Shown here: positions 21,452 through 31,150 of the stretch, one piece after another
How positions within the stretch are numbered: the first letter of the stretch is position 1
How the letters are laid out: every line of letters starts with the position of its first letter
NCBI GenBank assembly: GCA_020403455.1
Contig: JADBXP010000004.1
Location: 1-64,000, forward strand
Origin: Chitinophagaceae bacterium
Lineage (GTDB): Bacteria; Bacteroidota; Bacteroidia; Chitinophagales; Chitinophagaceae
Reading direction: 5' to 3'
Length of the DNA stretch: 64,000 nt
Notes under the pieces: model-generated
Told to the model about the DNA's origin: nothing
What the model saw: only the letters and a program-made list of their open reading frames with translations
Databases searched by the model: none
Position numbers and translations under genes: made by a program

Positions 21452-21552
21452 GCATGAAAGAGAATTAAGTATAACCTAGTATATCATTGATAATAATGAT
21501 CTGCTTTTCCTTTGAAAATTTACAAATGTTTTTAAGAATATTCAAAGTAAAG

Positions 21553-21906
21553 GCATAGTCTTTCGAATGAAATGAGAAGACTGTGCGGGTGGATTCCATA
21601 TACACCAACTAAAAAAGTTTCTGTAAATGATGTCTTGACAAAGCAATTGAAAAGTATCCCGCATAGTCCTCCAGCGCTGCGCTGCAGGAAGTGCGTGTGC
21701 GCCTATGGAGCAAGACTGTGCAGAGAAAGAAATTTCTCCTCCGCATAGTCTTTCGAATGAAATGAGAAGACTGTGCGGGTGGATTCCATATACACCAACT
21801 AAAAAAGTTTCTGTAAATGATGTCTTGACAAAGCAATTGAAAAGTATCCCGCATAGTCCTCCAGAGTTGCGCTGCAGGAAGAACTTGTGCGCCTATGGAG
21901 CAAGAC
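21553..21906. repeat. Tandem duplication, period 190 bp, of dispersed repeat modules C and D
   Basis: The unit starting GCATAGTCTTTCGAATGAAA at 21553 recurs at 21743. The second copy is traceable to about 21906, where it reaches the shared phrase GTGCGCCTATGGAGCAAGAC. Within each unit CCGCATAGTCTT can pair with AAGACTGTGCGG (one G-T wobble). Related copies occur at 22.8-23.0, 28.7-29.0 and 30.7-31.15 kb. The rest of the 659-bp gap between 21292 and 21950 is AT-rich and gene-free. The 110-aa reverse ORF here is repeat-derived. Confidence 0.85.
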
Positions 21907-21950
21907 CATCCGGAGGAAGTAGTATTAATGAACTCTCCCAACTATTATTT

Positions 21951-22556: not shown

Positions 22557-22797
22557 GAATTGTATTTAAAACCATTTTATGCCAGGGATCCTTCAGGCGA
22601 AAACAAAAACAGCAAATTGCTTGCCAAAGACAACATACACACTATCAGCTTCATTTATATTCCCTAGTAATTTTAGCTCTAATAATGAAACGATACTCCC
22701 TACTTGCCTTTCCAGAATCAAGCTTTAAAACCTTTACTGTAAATTCTTGATTTAGTCTCAATAAATAATCAATCTATGCTCTGTTTGAATAAATAAA

Positions 22798-23006
22798 TGC
22801 GGAAAACCGTAATTACCTATCCCATTTTTTGACTTAAAACATTGATTTTCAATAAAGCGATTTTTGTGTTTTCTCCTCCGCATAGTCTTTCGAATGAAGT
22901 GAGAAGACTGTGTGGGTGGATTGTAAATCAACCAAATGAGTAGGTATCTGCATCGAGGGACAGAGCAATTGAAAAGCATGGCGCAAAGTCTCCGCCAAAG
23001 GCGGAA
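22798..23006. repeat. 199-bp direct repeat, left copy flanking the bacteriocin locus (R3)
   Basis: Bases 22808-23006 match 28728-28926 with about three substitutions by eye, at a constant offset of 5,920 bp. The element begins with a TGCGG/CCGTA hairpin (22798-22811), then module B (TTTTTTGACTTAAAACATTG, with ATTGA-TTT-TCAAT pairing), then module C. It ends in the GCGGAA of the hairpin TCCGCC-AAA-GGCGGA. Both copies are in the same orientation and enclose the whole exporter/precursor cluster. Confidence 0.85.
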
Positions 23007-23461: not shown

Positions 23462-25621
23462 TTAAATGGTTTCTGTATGATAGTTCCATAAACCCTTATA
23501 GTGTCCGTTACTTTGCATTAATTGATGATGAGACCCCTGCTCTACTAGCTTACCATGGCTCAATACCAATATATTGTCACAATTTCTAATGGTAGTTAGT
23601 CTGTGAGCTATAATAATAACAGTTTTGCCCTGAGCCTTAAACCAATTCATCGAATCCTGCACTTTTTGTTCACTTGCAGGGTCAAGACTACTGGTGGCTT
23701 CATCTAGAATTAGAATCTCCGGATTTCGGTATAAAGCTCTTACAATAGCGATGCGTTGTCGCTGTCCTCCAGATAAATTTACACCTTGCTCACTAACAAT
23801 GCTATTATAAGTATTGGGAAGCTTTTCAATAAAATCATCAATACCAATCATTTTAGAAAGGGACAAAACTCTTTGCATATCCGGTTCATTGTCGCCAATG
23901 GCAATATTATCAATTATTGTACCAGTGAATAGATCAATATTTTGTGGTACCACACCCACCATTTGCCGCAAGCTGCGGTTGCTGATGTGTTGCAAATCCA
24001 GTCCACCAATGGTGATATTTCCCTCTTTTAACGGGTACATATTCTGTAGTAGTGAAAGCAGGGTAGATTTACCACTGCCGCTTTCACCTACAATGGCTGT
24101 ACTTTGCCCTTTTGATATAGCAAGGTTCAATCCTTCGAATACGGTAGTTCTTGAACCGTAACGAAATGTTACGTTATTGAAATAAATATCGCCAATCTGT
24201 TCGGGTGTGAGCTCAATTTTATTTTCGTTGGATGATTCGGTCTCAAGATCAATGATTTCAAATAAACGGTCGGCGGCAATCAAGGCATCCTGAATGTTTT
24301 TGTTGGCTCCAATGAGTGATGAAGCAGGGCCGGTAAAATAACCCACTAATGCATAAAAAGAAAGTAGCTCACCCGGTGATAACTCTCTTTGTATGACAAA
24401 ATAAGACCCGGCCCATAGCAGGATAATCGTAAAAAGTCTTGTGAAAAACTCTGACCCGGTACCAATGTATAAGGAATAAATACTTGTTTTATAAATAGTG
24501 CGGAGCAATGTTACAAACCTGACCTCTGTTTTATCATTGGCAAATGTTTCTAAGCCAAACCGCTTAATGGTGCCTACTGCATTTAAACTTTCCACCAACT
24601 GACTTTCTAATTCTGCACTTTCTTCCATTAAGCGACGCTGCCATTTCTTGTTAACCTTATTGCTTATCCAGTAAATAAGCAGGTAAACAGGAATAATGGC
24701 AAGCATGATTAACGCTAATTTCCAGTAGTAAAAAAACATGAGTACGATACTGAAAATCACAATTAGGCCGTTTACAATAAAGTTTAGTGCTACGTTGTTG
24801 ATAAACTCCCGAATATTTACCGCATCATTTACCCTGCTGATGATTTCGCCCACCCGCATGGTGTCAAAAAAACGCTGGGGTAGTTTGAGCAAGTGCTTGT
24901 AATAACCCAGTATCAAACGGGCATCAATCATTTGTCCAGTTTGTAATCCAAATACTGTTTTATACCCGCCAATAATGAGTTGAAAAATAAGAATCACAAT
25001 CATTGCTACACTCAGCAGGTTGAGTAGACGTATATTTCCTTCCACCAAAACAAAATCAATAATCTTTTGCATGTAGATGGAAGTGGATAAGCCAAGAATG
25101 GTATAAACTAAAGCACCGACCAATGCCTGAACCATGATAGCTGAATGTGGACGTATCAACTGCCAAAAGCGAGCCGCATTGCTGATTTTTTGTTTGCCGG
25201 TTACAAAACCATCATCGGGCAGTAAGAGCACGATGACGCCGCTCCATATCTCTTGAAACTTAGCCAATGAAACCGTATGAAAATCACCATCACCCGGATC
25301 CATATAGGCTAGTTTCTTCTTAGTAAACTTATAGATAACTACATAGTGATGTAAGCCATTTTTCAATACCACATGGGCAATAGCTGGCAATGGTACTTTG
25401 GCTAAACTTTCTAACTGGCCTTTAGCACCCTTAGCCTGAAAGCCCAAACGTTCAGCAGCCCCTATTAAACCCAATACATTGGTACCCCGCTTATCGGTAC
25501 CGGCATATTGCCGAATGCGACTTACAGGCAACTGTAAGTTATAGTGCATAGCTATTGAGGCTAAGCAAGTTGCACCACAATCGGTGATATCTCTTTGCTT
25601 TATCCGTACACGTTTATTCAT
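23462..25621 (-). CDS. Peptidase-containing ABC exporter (C39 peptidase, bacteriocin type)
   Basis: A 719-aa bifunctional exporter. Residues about 1-130 are a C39 cysteine peptidase: Q9, the catalytic C15 in ITDCGATC, a His in GLHHYVVIY and an Asp in YMDPGDG complete the active site. This domain cuts after double-glycine leaders during export. A six-TM ABC domain follows (about 160-440). The nucleotide-binding domain has Walker A GESGSGKST, signature NLSGGQRQR, Walker B ILILDEATSSLD and H-loop IIIAHRLTT. The ATG overlaps the end of the HlyD gene by 4 bp. Three double-glycine precursors lie upstream in the same direction and are the presumed cargo. Function is as in class II bacteriocin exporters. 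Confidence 0.95.
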   Translation of the reverse strand: MNKRVRIKQRDITDCGATCLASIAMHYNLQLPVSRIRQYAGTDKRGTNVLGLIGAAERLGFQAKGAKGQLESLAKVPLPAIAHVVLKNGLHHYVVIYKFTKKKLAYMDPGDGDFHTVSLAKFQEIWSGVIVLLLPDDGFVTGKQKISNAARFWQLIRPHSAIMVQALVGALVYTILGLSTSIYMQKIIDFVLVEGNIRLLNLLSVAMIVILIFQLIIGGYKTVFGLQTGQMIDARLILGYYKHLLKLPQRFFDTMRVGEIISRVNDAVNIREFINNVALNFIVNGLIVIFSIVLMFFYYWKLALIMLAIIPVYLLIYWISNKVNKKWQRRLMEESAELESQLVESLNAVGTIKRFGLETFANDKTEVRFVTLLRTIYKTSIYSLYIGTGSEFFTRLFTIILLWAGSYFVIQRELSPGELLSFYALVGYFTGPASSLIGANKNIQDALIAADRLFEIIDLETESSNENKIELTPEQIGDIYFNNVTFRYGSRTTVFEGLNLAISKGQSTAIVGESGSGKSTLLSLLQNMYPLKEGNITIGGLDLQHISNRSLRQMVGVVPQNIDLFTGTIIDNIAIGDNEPDMQRVLSLSKMIGIDDFIEKLPNTYNSIVSEQGVNLSGGQRQRIAIVRALYRNPEILILDEATSSLDPASEQKVQDSMNWFKAQGKTVIIIAHRLTTIRNCDNILVLSHGKLVEQGSHHQLMQSNGHYKGLWNYHTETI

Positions 25622-26769
25622 GGTTGCTTAGCTGTTCGGTGTGCAGGTGGCGCTGTGGGGTTGAGCCAATCATCTACTTTATCAAACAGTAATTGCCATA
25701 GTGTACGCTCTGCCACTACGAAACGTGCTTGAAAAGTAAGCCCCTTTTTTAATTCTCCTTTGTAGCCGTTTTTAAGTAAAAGCTGTGTGCTGTCGAAACT
25801 ACAACGTACTTTAAAAACCAGCTTATTTTCTGCCATCGTAAAATCATTGTCAATAGCAATCACCTTACCGGTAAGTATGCCAAAATAATTATAATCAAAA
25901 GCATCTATCTGGAAGCGTACTGGCTGATGAAGTTTGAGTAAGCCTACATCCCTCGTGCTTACGTAACATTCTCCTATTAAATTGCTTTGCGGCGAAATGA
26001 TGCAAAGTGTTTCTCCGGCTGAAATAAAACCACCCGCATAACGAGTGTTGATATTCTGTATTATACCAGAAACGGGTGCATAGATAAAATGATTTTTTTT
26101 ATCGGTTTCAATTTGGTTGCGCTGCGCCGTAAATTGCGATATTTCTAGTTTATAACGTTGTAAATCATTTTGCCAATTGGTGATTTGTTCATTCTTAAAT
26201 GCATTGAAAGAAGCCTGTAAGCGTTCAGCTTCTATTTCTTTATCAAAATGCTCCTTGGGTGCAATTACTTTGTCCTTGATTAATTGATTATTGATCTCCC
26301 GCTCTCTGTTTACCTTTTTAATTGCAGCCAGTTGATCGTTAAGTTGAAACAAAAACTTACTAAGTTGCTGGCGATAAAGTGGTGTCTGCAGTACTAGCGA
26401 CTCGTAATTAATATTACTGGTAAGCTTTTCCAAATCGCTAATAAAGCCAAGCCGCTGGGTAAGCTCAAATTCATTAAGAATAAAGCGAGGTTCAGTGTTA
26501 TTGTCTTTGATAGTTGCTATCAGTTGCCCTTGTAGTATCGTGTCGCCCTCTTTTACAAGCAAGGTGGCAATTATACCGGAAAGCACCGGTTTGAGCTCAG
26601 TGCGTTCATGATGTGGGCGGGTTAGGCCGGTGGATTTGACTGAGATATTAGTTTTTATTATTGGTAGTATGGAAACACTTAAAAGCACTAAGAATAAACT
26701 AAGAAGATATATACTATTACTCTGCTTAGGTTTTAAAAAATGAGTCTCTTTCAAATCGTAGTCAAACAT
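25618..26769 (-). CDS. HlyD-family periplasmic adaptor of the bacteriocin exporter
   Basis: A 383-aa membrane-fusion protein. A single N-terminal TM helix (SIYLLSLFLVLLSVSILPII) is followed by a split lipoyl half-motif (SGIIATLLVKEGDTILQGQL), a long coiled-coil hairpin (about residues 95-215), the second lipoyl half (YAPVSGIIQNINTRYAGGFI) and a beta-barrel domain. It would join the ABC exporter to an outer-membrane channel. No TolC homologue is encoded nearby, so one elsewhere in the genome is probably shared. It is translationally coupled to the exporter by an ATGA overlap. Confidence 0.93.
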   Translation of the reverse strand: MFDYDLKETHFLKPKQSNSIYLLSLFLVLLSVSILPIIKTNISVKSTGLTRPHHERTELKPVLSGIIATLLVKEGDTILQGQLIATIKDNNTEPRFILNEFELTQRLGFISDLEKLTSNINYESLVLQTPLYRQQLSKFLFQLNDQLAAIKKVNREREINNQLIKDKVIAPKEHFDKEIEAERLQASFNAFKNEQITNWQNDLQRYKLEISQFTAQRNQIETDKKNHFIYAPVSGIIQNINTRYAGGFISAGETLCIISPQSNLIGECYVSTRDVGLLKLHQPVRFQIDAFDYNYFGILTGKVIAIDNDFTMAENKLVFKVRCSFDSTQLLLKNGYKGELKKGLTFQARFVVAERTLWQLLFDKVDDWLNPTAPPAHRTAKQP

Positions 26770-26853
26770 TTCCTTCCTTTAAAAAATACCTTTTATGAAT
26801 AATAAAAAGTAGCCCGATTTAATTAAAAACAGGGTACTTTCAAAGATTCTCTG

Positions 26854-26982
26854 CTATTTCTCATATAATGCTTTAGTATGAGCAACGCAAGCTCCAATAA
26901 GCATTCCTATTCCGAAAATGAAGGGCCAATATTTTCGTAAGCCAGAGAAACCTTCCTGAAAGAAATTTTCCATATTGTTCAT
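26854..26982 (-). CDS. 42-aa single-TM protein, candidate bacteriocin immunity peptide
   Basis: The track ORF 26854-27051 starts within the neighbouring precursor. The ATG at 26982 is preferred because it overlaps the precursor's stop in an ATGA arrangement, the classic sign of translational coupling. The 42-aa product has a charged head (MNNMENFFQEGFSGLRK), one hydrophobic helix (WPFIFGIGMLIGACVAH) and a short basic tail. It has no double-glycine leader, so it is unlikely to be exported by the C39 route. Position and topology fit an immunity peptide guarding against the adjacent precursor's product. A small structural accessory protein is the alternative. Confidence 0.6.
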   Translation of the reverse strand: MNNMENFFQEGFSGLRKYWPFIFGIGMLIGACVAHTKALYEK

Positions 26983-27203
26983 TTTGTAGCCCACTGAACC
27001 ATTTTGTAACAACCATAGCCAACAGCTGCCCCAACTAAAGGAATTCCGCAAACTGCAGCGCCTACTAATAATACTTTACCTGCAACTGCCCCAGATGTTA
27101 CTATTGCTGGTGGTATAGCGCCTCCGTTTATTTCCTTCTCCTCTTCTACCGATAAAGAGGCCATTTTAATTTCACTTAAGGAAAATGAGTTATTTGTTTT
27201 CAT
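26979..27203 (-). CDS. Double-glycine leader bacteriocin-like precursor 1
   Basis: A 74-aa precursor. The leader ends in LSVEEEKEINGG, with L-12, E-8, I-4, G-2 and G-1 as in class II bacteriocin leaders, so the C39 domain should cut after Gly28. The 46-aa core (AIPPAIVTSGAVAG onward) is hydrophobic and Gly/Ala/Val-rich, with two cysteines (C52, C65) that could form a disulfide. It has GxxxG motifs at G38-G42 (GAVAG) and G58-G62 (GAAVG) and a basic amphipathic end (YKMVQWATK). This resembles membrane-permeabilising unmodified bacteriocins. It overlaps the 42-aa TM gene by 4 bp and lies upstream of the hlyD-like and exporter genes. Confidence 0.85.
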   Translation of the reverse strand: MKTNNSFSLSEIKMASLSVEEEKEINGGAIPPAIVTSGAVAGKVLLVGAAVCGIPLVGAAVGYGCYKMVQWATK

Positions 27204-27333
27204 TTTGCTTGTTAATAATAGGGATACAGAATATTCTTACTTCTTTATGACAAAATATTCACGTGGTAACTTTACTAACTGAATAACCAAAAGCCAGATA
27301 TTAATTTATCAAATTCAAATAGTAATATCAAAA

Positions 27334-27819
27334 TCAGGCTAACTTTAGCACATCATCTAGTATAAATGCATATGTATTGTAAATAGCATGTATAAAAAAT
27401 GTATAAAAAAATCCTGATTTGCCTCGATTTATAAAATAAACATATACCCTACAAAAAATTATTCCGGCAAAAGTTGAATCAATAATTGTTAGAACATTAT
27501 AGTTGTGAGTTATACCAAACAATAAAGAAGCAGAAAAAATCAATATGTACAGTTTTGAATTAGATTTCTTTCTAACAAACTTGTAAAAAAGGACTATTGG
27601 TAATGCTTGAAAAACTGCCGTTTCAATCAATGGTCCCCAAACCGAACCTATTAGGAATATTTTAAATAAAGTATCAGTATTTGTAAAATATTCTACTTTG
27701 CATTCACCGTTAGACAAAATATAAGGGCAAATAATTGAGAATAAATGCCCTAACATAATTAGGATTGCCAAATTTGAAAGAAAAAAAAGGGAGTCTGAAT
27801 GATTATTCCATTTTGACAT
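27334..27819 (-). CDS. CPBP (Abi) family intramembrane protease-like protein
   Basis: A 161-aa protein with about five TM segments. Motif 2 FGITH (FxxxH) and motif 3 HAIYN (HxxxN) of the CPBP/Rce1-like family are present. Motif 1, normally EExxxR, reads ETAVFQ, so the second Glu and the Arg are replaced. In lactic acid bacteria, family members encoded in bacteriocin loci act as self-immunity proteins, sometimes needing the catalytic motifs. It lies between precursors 1 and 2 on the same strand, so immunity is the best inference. Leader processing is less likely because the exporter already carries a C39 peptidase. It is shorter than typical members. Confidence 0.75.
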   Translation of the reverse strand: MSKWNNHSDSLFFLSNLAILIMLGHLFSIICPYILSNGECKVEYFTNTDTLFKIFLIGSVWGPLIETAVFQALPIVLFYKFVRKKSNSKLYILIFSASLLFGITHNYNVLTIIDSTFAGIIFCRVYVYFINRGKSGFFYTFFIHAIYNTYAFILDDVLKLA

Positions 27820-27897
27820 AAAATGAAAAAAAATGATTGCAATATCTAACTAAGATTATTGCAATCATATTTTTAAAAATTTTAACGATGTTGCCCT

Positions 27898-28110
27898 CTA
27901 TTTTTTTAAATTTGGAGGTAAAGAGGCTTGAAATTCTGCAGCCATGGTGCAAACTTTGAAAAACCCTTCTGCAAAGTCTACACAATAACCAGCTAGCTTT
28001 CCGACGGCCTTACCAAGTTGTTTCCCAACGTCACCTCCATTAATATTTACAATTTCGTCTTTATTCAAATCACTTAGATTGAAGCTTTTCAAATTCAGGT
28101 TTTTGTTCAT
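27898..28110 (-). CDS. Double-glycine leader bacteriocin-like precursor 2
   Basis: A 70-aa precursor with leader end LNKDEIVNINGG (cut after Gly26). The 44-aa core begins DVGKQLGKAVGKLAG, which places glycines at 29, 33, 37 and 41: three overlapping GxxxG motifs on one helix face with lysines between. Cysteines at 43 and 54 could form a disulfide. The phrase DFAEGF (45-50) recurs as DFCEGF in precursor 3. GxxxG-mediated helix pairing is a hallmark of two-peptide (class IIb) bacteriocins, so this peptide may act with one of its neighbours. It is 58 bp downstream of precursor 3. Confidence 0.85.
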   Translation of the reverse strand: MNKNLNLKSFNLSDLNKDEIVNINGGDVGKQLGKAVGKLAGYCVDFAEGFFKVCTMAAEFQASLPPNLKK

Positions 28111-28168
28111 TTTTTAATTTTTTTACATAAATAATTAGATAGGATCTTTAGCATAAATTTTTTTTCAA

Positions 28169-28399
28169 CTACCATGAACCAGTTGCACCATGGCCACGAC
28201 TACCCCCACGAACTTCGTAATAACCCTCCTTGAAACCTTCACAAAAATCCATGAAAAAATCAACTATTCCAGCCTTTTCGACTACCCATTTCGTGCCATC
28301 CCAAATTTTTTTAAAGGGTATTCTTCCACCTTCAATGAATATAATTTCATCGTTTGCTAAAGGAATCAATCCCATTCTATTTAATTCCAAAGTTTGCAT
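28169..28399 (-). CDS. Double-glycine leader bacteriocin-like precursor 3
   Basis: A 76-aa precursor with leader end LANDEIIFIEGG (cut after Gly25). The 51-aa core (RIPFKKIWDGTKW onward) is amphipathic with aromatic and basic residues. It contains DFCEGFKEGYYEV, matching DFAEGF in precursor 2, and finishes in a Gly/Arg-rich tail (RGGSRGHGATGSW). Its single cysteine (C53) cannot make an internal disulfide. It is the first gene of the presumed operon. The tail contains a second GG, but it lacks the leader consensus and is probably not a processing site. Confidence 0.8.
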   Translation of the reverse strand: MQTLELNRMGLIPLANDEIIFIEGGRIPFKKIWDGTKWVVEKAGIVDFFMDFCEGFKEGYYEVRGGSRGHGATGSW

Positions 28400-28416
28400 A
28401 AATTAAAGTTTTTTCA

Positions 28417-28566
28417 TCACCTCTCTTTCGCTGTGGTGTAGATTATTTTTAATTCAGCGTCACGCAGAATTCCCGCTACCGTGAACTCGGTTTTTCCAGT
28501 TTTGCTTTTGGCCGGACTGTCTAATGTTAAACCCCGGGTTGTATCGTGCCAACCAACGTCCTTTTT
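28417..28566 (-). other. Open frame without start codon 5' of precursor 3
   Basis: Reading the reverse strand after the TAA at about 28567-28569, 49 codons stay open to a TGA at 28417-28419, only 17 nt before precursor 3. The translation (…LTLDSPAKSKTGKTEFTVAG…) looks protein-like but has no ATG near its beginning, and its 5' part lies in repeat module A. It may be the truncated 3' end of a lost gene. No family recognised. Confidence 0.3.
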
Positions 28567-29045
28567 TTATCCGCGGCCGCAGACATATGGCTAATGAAGG
28601 AGTAAAGCCCTGATTGCGCAATCAATCATGATCATAAGAATTCCTATCGCAATTTTTACATCTTTCATTACATACCAAAAAAATCAATCAATTATTTTTA
28701 AAATCTTGAAAAATAAATACGTAAAGACGTAATTACCTATCCCATTTTTTGACTTAAAACATTGATTTTCAATAAAGCGATTTTTGTGTTTTCTCCTCCG
28801 CATAGTCTTTCGAATGAAGTGAGATCACTGTGCGGGTGGATTGTAAATCAACCAAATGAGTAGGTATCTGCATCGAGGGACAGAGCAATTGAAAAGCATG
28901 GCGCAAAGTCTCCGCCAAAGGCGGAATACTTCGCGGAGGAAAAAAGAGGAGAAATTGAAAAATTATCCCGCATAGTCCTCCAGCGCTGCGCTGCAGGAAG
29001 AGCGTGTGCGCCTATGGAGCAAGACTGTGCAGAGAAAGAAATTAC
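28538..29045. repeat. Composite dispersed repeat R4 (modules A, B, C, D) incl. right 199-bp copy
   Basis: Four modules lie in order. A (about 28538-28640) includes the perfect palindrome TGATTGCGCAATCA at 28611-28624. B starts with the TACGT/ACGTA hairpin (28718-28731). C runs to the TCCGCC/GGCGGA hairpin. D (about 28970-29045) has CAGCGCTGCGCTGCAGGAAG and GTGCGCCTATGGAGCAAGAC. Bases 28728-28926 are the right-hand partner of the direct repeat at 22808-23006. Together with the open frame above, this accounts for the gene-free interval 28400-29082. Confidence 0.8.
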
Positions 29046-29082
29046 AATCTCCACAAGTGCAACTATTATTCTTTTCTTGCCT

Positions 29083-29958
29083 TCAGTTTCGCTCATGTAA
29101 TGTAACTGAAAAATAAAGATTCGCTTTTTGATTTTTGCCAAACGAAAAAGGTCGAAAGGTCTTGGTAAAATACCTTGTCATAATTAATCCGTCTTCAAAA
29201 TCAGAAGACAACCAACCTAGCAGAGATAAAGTGCTAACATCATTACTTTCATCAGTTGTACCAAGAAATTCAAAACCAATGAAACATCCACTTTCAGGTA
29301 TATCAAATTCGAATTTTTTTAAATCAACATATGCAAGGTTTTCTCTAATTTCATTTAGAATAAATATATCTGTGGCATTTAATATTTCTTCGCCTATTGT
29401 CTTATCATCTTTTGCGGCAAATATCCTAATTCGAAATTTGCTGGCATTGTATTTTAATTTTGGCAGACTAACTCTCACAACTAATTCAGATAAAACATAT
29501 GTTTTTTGCAGGTTAGGGTGAGAAAAATATTTTACTATCGTTAGACCAGACTCTGGTACATTCAAACGAAATTTTGAAGGCCCCGCCAATCTTCCGATTT
29601 CAATTTTTTTATTTTTTAACCAATCATAGTCCCCAACCACTACCGGACGTAGTGTTTTAAAAAAAGGAGATAGAAGTATTGTGTCTGGCCTATCCCTGTT
29701 GATAACAATTTTTTTGTCCGCATACCCAACACATGAAATATAGGCTGTATCATCTAAAATATCTTTAAACGAAAAAAAGCCTAGTGAATCAGTATAAGAA
29801 CCAAATGAAAAACTACGGACAATGGCATATGGTACCGGCTTCTTTGTTATAGAGTCAAGTATTATCCCCTGAAAAGTATTTTGACCATATACAGAATGTG
29901 AAATTATTATAACAATGAAGAAGAAAATCTTTATAAAATATATTGTAACTCGTCGCAT
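29083..29958 (-). CDS. Exported protein with carboxypeptidase-regulatory-like domain
   Basis: A 291-aa protein with a signal peptide (IIISHSVYGQ). Residues about 28-90 form a CarboxypepD_reg-like beta sandwich (FQGIILDSITKKPVPYAIV … TDSLGFFSF), a module common in Bacteroidota surface proteins. The remaining 200 residues are beta-rich with no recognised family. It stands alone in the repeat-rich region with AT-rich codon use, so it may be accessory. No functional link to the bacteriocin genes is visible beyond proximity. Confidence 0.65.
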   Translation of the reverse strand: MRRVTIYFIKIFFFIVIIISHSVYGQNTFQGIILDSITKKPVPYAIVRSFSFGSYTDSLGFFSFKDILDDTAYISCVGYADKKIVINRDRPDTILLSPFFKTLRPVVVGDYDWLKNKKIEIGRLAGPSKFRLNVPESGLTIVKYFSHPNLQKTYVLSELVVRVSLPKLKYNASKFRIRIFAAKDDKTIGEEILNATDIFILNEIRENLAYVDLKKFEFDIPESGCFIGFEFLGTTDESNDVSTLSLLGWLSSDFEDGLIMTRYFTKTFRPFSFGKNQKANLYFSVTLHERN

Positions 29959-30671: not shown

Positions 30672-31150
30672 AATGACATCTTCGAAGTAACCTAACTACA
30701 ATTTTATTTCTTTTCTCCTCCGCATAGTCTTTCGAATAAAATGAGAAGACTGTGCGGGTGAATTGCATACCAACCAAATGAGTAGGTATCTGCATCAATG
30801 TATGGACAGAGCAATTGAAAAGCATGCCGCAAAGTCTCCGCCAAAGGCGGAAGACTTCGCGGAGGAAAAATGACATCTTCGAAGTAACCTAACTACAATT
30901 TCATTTCTTCTTTCTCCTCCGCATAGTTTTTCGAATGAAATGAGAAGACTGTGCGGGTGGATTGTAAATGAACCAAATGAGTAGGTACCTGCATCGAGGG
31001 ACAGAGCAATTGAAAAGCATGCCGCAAAGTCTCCGCCAAAGGCGGAAGACTTCGCGGAGGAAAAATCAGATATTCTCCTCCACACACGCCTCCGGCGCTG
31101 TGCCACAGAAAGAGCGTGTGCGCCTATGGAGCAAGACGATGCGGAAAACA
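30672..31150. repeat. Tandem repeat array, period 197 bp, modules C and D
   Basis: AATGACATCTTCGAAGTAAC at 30672 recurs at 30869, followed in each unit by CTCCTCCGCATAG and the rest of module C. The last unit runs into a module D-like end (GTGCGCCTATGGAGCAAGAC near 31109-31138). Each C unit contains AAGTCTCCGCC-AAA-GGCGGAAGACTT, a strong hairpin with a one-base bulge. This fills most of the 720-bp gene-free interval 30569-31288. Track ORFs here are repeat-derived. Confidence 0.85.

What the first reader, a model, noticed from the sequence alone, without database searches (positions are those of the whole stretch)
27898..28399. Precursors 2 and 3 may form a two-peptide system: GxxxG ladder and shared DFxEGF
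Precursor 2's core has glycines at 29, 33, 37 and 41, giving three overlapping GxxxG motifs. DFAEGF in precursor 2 and DFCEGF in precursor 3 lie at similar core positions. Class IIb bacteriocins pair through GxxxG helices, and the genes are adjacent (58 bp apart). The single Cys of precursor 3 against two in precursor 2 leaves intermolecular disulfides possible.
Basis: partly seen in the sequence, partly recalled or inferred. Interest (0 to 1): 0.75.

Follow-up and report, generated by a model that had tools for sequence, protein, structure and literature searches.

The report
Paired-peptide bacteriocin cassette in Sediminibacterium
Two small neighbouring genes in a Bacteroidota genome very probably make the two halves of one secreted bacteria-killing peptide pair, because relatives keep both halves together with the same presumed protective gene and swap all three as one block; this would be a two-peptide bacteriocin, a kind known from Gram-positive bacteria, in a Gram-negative phylum.

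Summary
P3 (28399-28169, -) and P2 (28110-27898, -) are double-glycine precursors in a unit P3-P2-CPBP protease-HlyD-PCAT. Eighteen loci from Sediminibacterium, Hydrotalea, Flavihumibacter and other Chitinophagales carry adjacent P3-P2. Among 101 genus genomes, 15 have strong hits for both, one P2 only, none P3 only. P3 core, P2 core and CPBP co-diverge (r 0.67-0.77) but hardly follow PCAT (0.22-0.25). Two near-identical loci differ in one ~1-kb block holding P3 core + P2 + CPBP, with its left edge at P3's Gly-Gly codons. This fits a class IIb-type bacteriocin pair with a cognate CPBP immunity protein.

The motifs fare worse. The P2 glycine ladder is non-random (p = 0.0012) but conserved only in a four-member subgroup. 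DFxEGF occurs in no relative, and cysteines are not conserved, so an intermolecular disulfide is not supported. AlphaFold was uninformative. Activity, synergy and immunity are untested.

The parts
28169..28399 (-). P3 ('precursor 3'): 76-aa peptide, 25-aa leader ending ...IFIEGG, 51-aa predicted core RIPFKK...; beta-like partner; conserved G55xxxG59
   Evidence: ORF; P3-family HMM E=3e-29, though it is in the training set; GxxxG kept in 17 of 18 family cores
27898..28110 (-). P2 ('precursor 2'): 70-aa peptide, 26-aa leader ending ...VNINGG, 44-aa predicted core with glycine ladder; alpha-like partner; conserved C-terminus [YF]QxSLPPNLKK
   Evidence: ORF; sub-threshold NCBIfam lactococcin G-alpha 17.1 bits; P2-family HMM; ladder conserved in closest subgroup
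27334..27819 (-). CPBP/CAAX-type intramembrane protease homologue, 161 aa; presumed cognate immunity protein. E66, H105, H144 and N148 kept; motif 1 is ET...Q instead of the usual EE...R
   Evidence: Pfam PF02517 E=8e-6, above gathering score; motifs; co-diverges with P2 and P3 cores
25618..26769 (-). HlyD-family membrane-fusion protein of the exporter
   Evidence: Pfam PF13437 E=1e-18, TIGR01843 E=8e-36
23462..25621 (-). PCAT: C39 peptidase + ABC exporter expected to cut after Gly-Gly and export the cores
   Evidence: TIGR01193 533 bits, above cut-off; PF03412 + PF00664 + PF00005
28453..28490 (-). Conserved upstream element of P3 (CCGAGTTCACGGTAGCGGGAATTYTGCGTGACGCTGAA), part of a ~120-nt conserved stretch 28440-28570; possible operator or 5' leader
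   Evidence: Alignment of 10 upstream regions; pattern in 8 of 101 genus genomes, each with one copy just upstream of P3
26979..27203 (-). P1: third double-glycine peptide, 74 aa, inserted between CPBP and HlyD; not part of the conserved pair
   Evidence: ORF; absent from the other 100 genus genomes and from the Hydrotalea cassette
26854..26982 (-). 42-aa single-TM ORF after P1, possible immunity peptide for P1 (inference)
   Evidence: ORF; no family hit

Best explanation
P3 and P2 are the two halves of an unmodified class IIb-type (two-peptide) bacteriocin. Both precursors would be cut after Gly-Gly and exported by the PCAT-HlyD machine (inferred from the families). The two helical cores would then combine, probably in a target cell's membrane, and permeabilise it (inferred). 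The CPBP-family membrane protein encoded next to them is the cognate immunity protein that protects the producer (inferred from co-divergence and from the Abi/CPBP immunity proteins of plantaricins). Shown here: the genes, the conserved order, near-obligate co-occurrence, co-divergence of P3 core, P2 core and CPBP independent of the exporter, and replacement of these three as one block. Not shown: cleavage, activity, synergy, contact between the peptides, target, immunity.
For: (1) Same order and strand P3-P2-CPBP-HlyD-PCAT in window, Hydrotalea, Flavihumibacter and many Sediminibacterium-group genomes, and P3-P2-CPBP in a different family of the order (G356). (2) In 101 genus genomes strong P3 hits in 15, strong P2 hits in 16, 15 shared; Fisher p = 5e-17, a figure that ignores relatedness and linkage. 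(3) Distance matrices over 14 loci: P3core~P2core r=0.67, P3core~CPBP 0.77, P2core~CPBP 0.74, HlyD~PCAT 0.92, but cores~PCAT only 0.22-0.25; P3core~P2core given PCAT still 0.65. (4) G444 vs G860: 98.7% identity up to the Gly-Gly codons of P3, then ~1 kb at 35-75% covering P3 core, P2, CPBP and the HlyD start, then about 92%. (5) No modification enzyme seen in the unit. (6) Sub-threshold matches to the two halves of lactococcin G: P3 (Flavihumibacter) to G-beta 22.9 bits, falling to 12.9 when the core is replaced; window P2 to G-alpha 17.1 bits, lost when the core is replaced. (7) Known class IIb pairs have GxxxG or GxxxG-like motifs, and some immunity proteins are of the Abi/CPBP family (PMC8538875).
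Against: No activity data. Partial correlation of P3core and P2core given CPBP is only 0.23 (p = 0.09), so direct P2-P3 co-evolution is not separated from co-evolution with the immunity gene. The P2 ladder is missing outside its subgroup. P3's GxxxG recurs in leaderless membrane proteins with no P2 partner, so it need not be a pairing motif. G340 has P2 + CPBP without P3, G829 has CPBP + one divergent P3-like peptide, and G122 has P3 + CPBP with a second peptide that barely matches P2. Cores are only weakly cationic (own +1 and +2). NCBIfam cut-offs are not reached. AlphaFold on the fused pair had pLDDT 45-49.
Confidence: 0.7

Rival explanations
1. P3 and P2 are two independent one-peptide bacteriocins that share an exporter and one immunity protein and are kept together only by linkage.
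For: P1 shows that extra, unrelated leader peptides do join this operon. One cassette has CPBP with a single divergent peptide (G829) and one has P2 without P3 (G340). Direct P2-P3 co-divergence is weak once CPBP is accounted for.
Against: Near-perfect pairing and fixed order across genera and into another family; a single CPBP for the pair almost everywhere; joint replacement with CPBP.
Confidence: 0.15
2. The CPBP protein is a maturation protease for the peptides rather than an immunity protein; the pair may still be a bacteriocin.
For: CPBP proteins include processing proteases; catalytic-type E, H, H, N are kept in the window and its close relatives; weak MroQ similarity (E=0.013).
Against: Cleavage is already explained by the C39 domain; CPBP diverges with the cores and not with the exporter and was replaced together with them, as expected for immunity specificity.
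Confidence: 0.12
3. The peptides are secreted signals (pheromones), not toxins.
For: Leader-type similarity to BlpC, ComC and EntF signals in some members; a LuxR-type response regulator lies divergently next to the G385 cassette.
Against: No sensor kinase or receptor gene in the conserved unit; two peptides plus a co-varying membrane protein and allelic block swapping are typical of bacteriocins; leader similarity is shared by bacteriocins and signals.
Confidence: 0.06

Closest known systems
Lactococcin G / enterocin 1071 (class IIb, NCBIfam NF038035 and NF038034)
   Same: Two adjacent Gly-Gly precursors of similar size, GxxxG in both partners of the window's subgroup, C39 ABC exporter, one immunity gene. 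Some P2 and P3 members weakly match the alpha and beta models.
   Different: Gram-negative producer, scores far below the family cut-offs (17.1 and 22.9 bits against 37), CPBP-type protein instead of LagC.
Plantaricin EF and JK with Abi/CPBP-type immunity proteins PlnI and PlnL
   Same: Two-peptide bacteriocin with a CPBP-family membrane protein as immunity (reviewed in PMC8538875).
   Different: No match of the peptides to a plantaricin family model was found; CPBP motif 1 here is ET...Q rather than EE...R.
Bacteroidetocins (PMC6671954)
   Same: Gly-Gly leader peptides of Bacteroidota with a PCAT exporter.
   Different: Single peptide with four cysteines and a thiol oxidoreductase; that paper found no immunity gene. 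Here: two peptides, no conserved cysteine, CPBP gene.
Class II bacteriocin predictions in Bacteroidota by IIBacFinder (commentary PMC12648078)
   Same: Unmodified class II bacteriocins predicted in Gram-negative phyla including Bacteroidota.
   Different: The commentary describes no paired cassette of this type; the primary paper and its tables were not read.

Membership tests
Class IIb (two-peptide) bacteriocins | Two different structural peptides encoded next to each other in one unit | tested here: met
   P3-P2 same strand, 58 bp apart; conserved in 18 loci
Class IIb (two-peptide) bacteriocins | Double-glycine leaders and C39 ABC exporter | tested here: met
   Leaders by inspection; PCAT above TIGR01193 cut-off; cleavage itself not tested
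Class IIb (two-peptide) bacteriocins | GxxxG or GxxxG-like motif in both peptides | tested here: inconclusive
   Met in window, Hydrotalea and G385; family-wide P3 keeps GxxxG (17 of 18 cores) but most P2 have only small-xxx-small; P3 motif also in non-partnered membrane proteins
Class IIb (two-peptide) bacteriocins | One cognate immunity gene in the unit | tested here: inconclusive
   CPBP gene present and co-diverging; protection not testable here
Class IIb (two-peptide) bacteriocins | Optimal activity only with both peptides at about 1:1 | not testable with these tools
   needs peptides and sensitive strains
Class IIb (two-peptide) bacteriocins | Cationic, amphipathic or helical cores | tested here: inconclusive
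   Own cores +1 and +2; P2 ladder segment amphipathic p=0.04; P3 p=0.13; helices in low-confidence models only
Lactococcin G / enterocin 1071 family (NF038035, NF038034) | Score above the NCBIfam cut-off (37 bits) | tested here: not met
   17.1 bits (P2), 22.9 bits (best P3 reported), window P3 no hit
Bacteroidetocins | Single peptide with four cysteines plus thiol oxidoreductase gene | tested here: not met
   Two peptides, no conserved Cys, no such gene seen in the unit
TIGR04149 rSAM-modified Gly-Gly RiPPs | Score above cut-off and radical-SAM maturase nearby | tested here: not met
   Best E=0.13, below cut-off; no maturase among the genes of the unit

The most novel reading that the evidence does not exclude
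A family of genuine two-peptide bacteriocins native to Gram-negative Chitinophagales, distantly related or convergent to lactococcin G, whose specificity evolves by swapping a 'beta core - alpha peptide - immunity' block with one edge at the Gly-Gly cleavage codons, under a shared upstream element.
Probability: 0.5. Interest if true: 0.65.

Novelty: new variant of a known kind. Interest (0 to 1): 0.52.

Why it matters
Two-peptide unmodified bacteriocins are known from Gram-positive bacteria. In the papers I could search I found none described from Bacteroidota; that search was limited to an open-licence library. If confirmed, this genus group would offer natural matched sets of peptide pairs and immunity proteins. 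The block-swapped pair G444/G860 allows a direct test of which partner combinations work and what the immunity protein recognises.

Tried and rejected
DFxEGF as a shared signature: absent from all relatives of both peptides, so rejected. Intermolecular disulfide: cysteines not conserved, so not supported. Ladder as a general family trait: only in the closest subgroup. G183 as a lone P2: a P3-like ORF lies upstream, so rejected as a counter-example. Class-wide search with the P2 profile: only weak, mainly leader-type hits. NCBIfam with cores alone: no bacteriocin family found, so the lactococcin G resemblance is treated as suggestive only. Solved structures: no relevant hit. Rfam on 26000-29300: nothing. 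AlphaFold of P3core-stop-P2 read through in frame (Hydrotalea, G444): pLDDT 49 and 46, pTM 0.39 and 0.34, uninformative.

Full report
What is there. On the minus strand, from 28399 down to 23462, lie P3, P2, a CPBP-family membrane protein, an extra leader peptide P1 with a 42-aa TM ORF, HlyD and a C39-peptidase ABC exporter. The ladder is unlikely by chance (0.12% of shuffled cores) and the shared word is also uncommon (0.8%).

Relatives. A family-level search found a Hydrotalea genome with adjacent orthologues of P3 (67% identity) and P2 (49%) followed by an orthologous CPBP. Profile searches at order and genus level gave many more. HMM annotation of about 40 loci shows P3-P2-CPBP-HlyD-PCAT in the same order and strand. 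In 101 genomes of the genus, 15 have strong hits for both, G340 has P2 only, and none has P3 only; in each of the 15 the two are adjacent. Weaker hits (for example G455, G829) are left out of that count, and G889 is a decayed copy. The Fisher p of 5e-17 ignores relatedness and linkage and is only descriptive. The apparent lone P2 of G183 has a P3-like ORF just upstream. G122 has P3 with a second peptide that is at best a very distant P2, and G829 has CPBP with one divergent P3-like peptide.

What is conserved in each peptide. Among 18 P3 cores the conserved part is the C-terminal half, roughly [DNH][WF]xx[IVF][KD]xG[FLI]x[DE]G[WY]; 17 of 18 keep the GxxxG that in the window is G55-G59. In P2 the conserved part is the C-terminus, [YF]QxSLPPNLKK. 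The four-step glycine ladder is in the window, Hydrotalea and G385, and in the decayed G889 copy, which has in-frame stops in both genes. DFxEGF occurs in none of the relatives. In P3 the aligned segments read DVKNGF, DMYDGI or, further off, EIKKGL, so DFCEGF is one variant of the P3 motif, while DFAEGF in P2 aligns with unrelated residues. Cysteines come and go.

Two modules. For 14 complete loci I compared distance matrices. P3 core, P2 core and CPBP follow one another (r 0.67 to 0.77). HlyD and PCAT follow each other (0.92). The cores follow PCAT weakly (0.22 to 0.25). Controlling for PCAT leaves P3core~P2core at 0.65; controlling for CPBP leaves 0.23 (p = 0.09). The peptides and CPBP therefore form one evolving unit, but the data do not separate direct peptide-peptide co-evolution from joint co-evolution with CPBP. 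Distances are not independent observations, cores are short, and shared recombination history could produce part of this.

A natural block swap. G444 and G860 are near-identical upstream (98.7%) up to L057 position 6393, which lies in the Gly-Gly codons of P3. From there to about 7384 identity falls to 35-75% across P3 core, P2, CPBP and the HlyD start, then returns to about 92%. The G860 block resembles that of G814 (P3 94%, P2 91%, CPBP 88% amino-acid identity). G444 and G860 are draft metagenome assemblies, but each block sits in a continuous contig, and a near-identical version of the G860 block is in another record (L081).

Mechanism. The best-supported reading is a class IIb-type bacteriocin: leader removal and export by PCAT-HlyD, joint action of two helical cores on a membrane, protection by CPBP. 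Only the genetic organisation and its evolution are shown here; cleavage, activity, synergy, target and immunity are inferred. Precedents are the general GxxxG feature of class IIb peptides and the Abi/CPBP immunity proteins of plantaricins (PMC8538875), and mutational evidence on GxxxG-type motifs in lactococcin G and acidicin P (PMC10434283). A role of the window's own glycine ladder in pairing is plausible but unproven. P3's GxxxG is also present in leaderless small membrane proteins outside such cassettes (core-only profile E 7e-10 to 2.5e-7), so it may serve membrane interaction rather than pairing.

Relation to lactococcin G. Some P3 members match the NCBIfam lactococcin G-beta model (best 22.9 bits, E 7e-5), and some P2 members the G-alpha model (best E 0.004, 17.1 bits); both are below the 37-bit cut-offs. 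The assignment is not exclusive: three P2 members also touch the G-beta model weakly (best E 0.019). Grafting an unrelated core on the same leader lowers the first score to 12.9 bits and removes the second match, so the cores contribute, but cores alone find no bacteriocin family and the window P3 itself has no hit. Membership in that family is not claimed.

Limits. The library of papers is partial, so absence of earlier reports is weak evidence. AlphaFold with six sequences and a read-through linker gave low confidence. Searches sampled genomes rather than exhausting them.

Noticed in passing
window 28440-28570 (-), L028 5625-5745, G000:C17:203749-203960, L158 1501-1535: An upstream element with a highly conserved ~38-nt core precedes P3 in many cassettes. 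It is in 8 of 101 genus genomes, each with one copy just upstream of P3. A second copy in the own genome (94% over 212 nt) precedes an unrelated 98-aa secreted-type protein, and one in G860 lies near a response regulator gene. No Rfam match. Possibly a shared operator or 5' leader.
   Followed up: partly
L055 4669-5319 (-): A LuxR-type response regulator (PF00072 + PF00196) is encoded divergently from the G385 cassette; it is a candidate regulator of the element.
   Followed up: partly
L120 594-755, L122 4781-4945, L124 4567-4716, L121 4610-4990, L029 9804-9920: Leaderless small membrane proteins, and one HTH-TM protein, end in the same motif as P3 (for example NYNDVVKGFNDGYNS). Their role is unknown; the one in L029 sits inside a cassette.
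   Followed up: partly
window 26979-27203 and 26854-26982 (-): P1, a third Gly-Gly peptide rich in Gly and Ala, with a 42-aa single-TM ORF behind it; P1 was found in no other of 101 genus genomes.
   Followed up: partly
L056 7276-7368 (-), L059 6436-6573 (+): Short single-TM ORFs (30 and 45 aa) between P2 and CPBP in some cassettes; possible extra immunity peptides.
   Followed up: no
window 22791-23006 and 28711-28926: A 216-nt direct repeat, 97% identical, brackets the whole cluster at 5920-bp spacing; another copy (73%) lies at 30832-31047 and related repeats at 21534-21925. May favour recombination of the cluster.
   Followed up: partly
window 28169-28210 (-): The window P3 has a C-terminal extension GGSRGHGATGSW; its closest relatives end about where it begins.
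   Followed up: no
L112 4521-4960 (+): Decayed P3-P2 copy in G889 with in-frame stops in both genes; the glycine ladder is still recognisable.
   Followed up: yes
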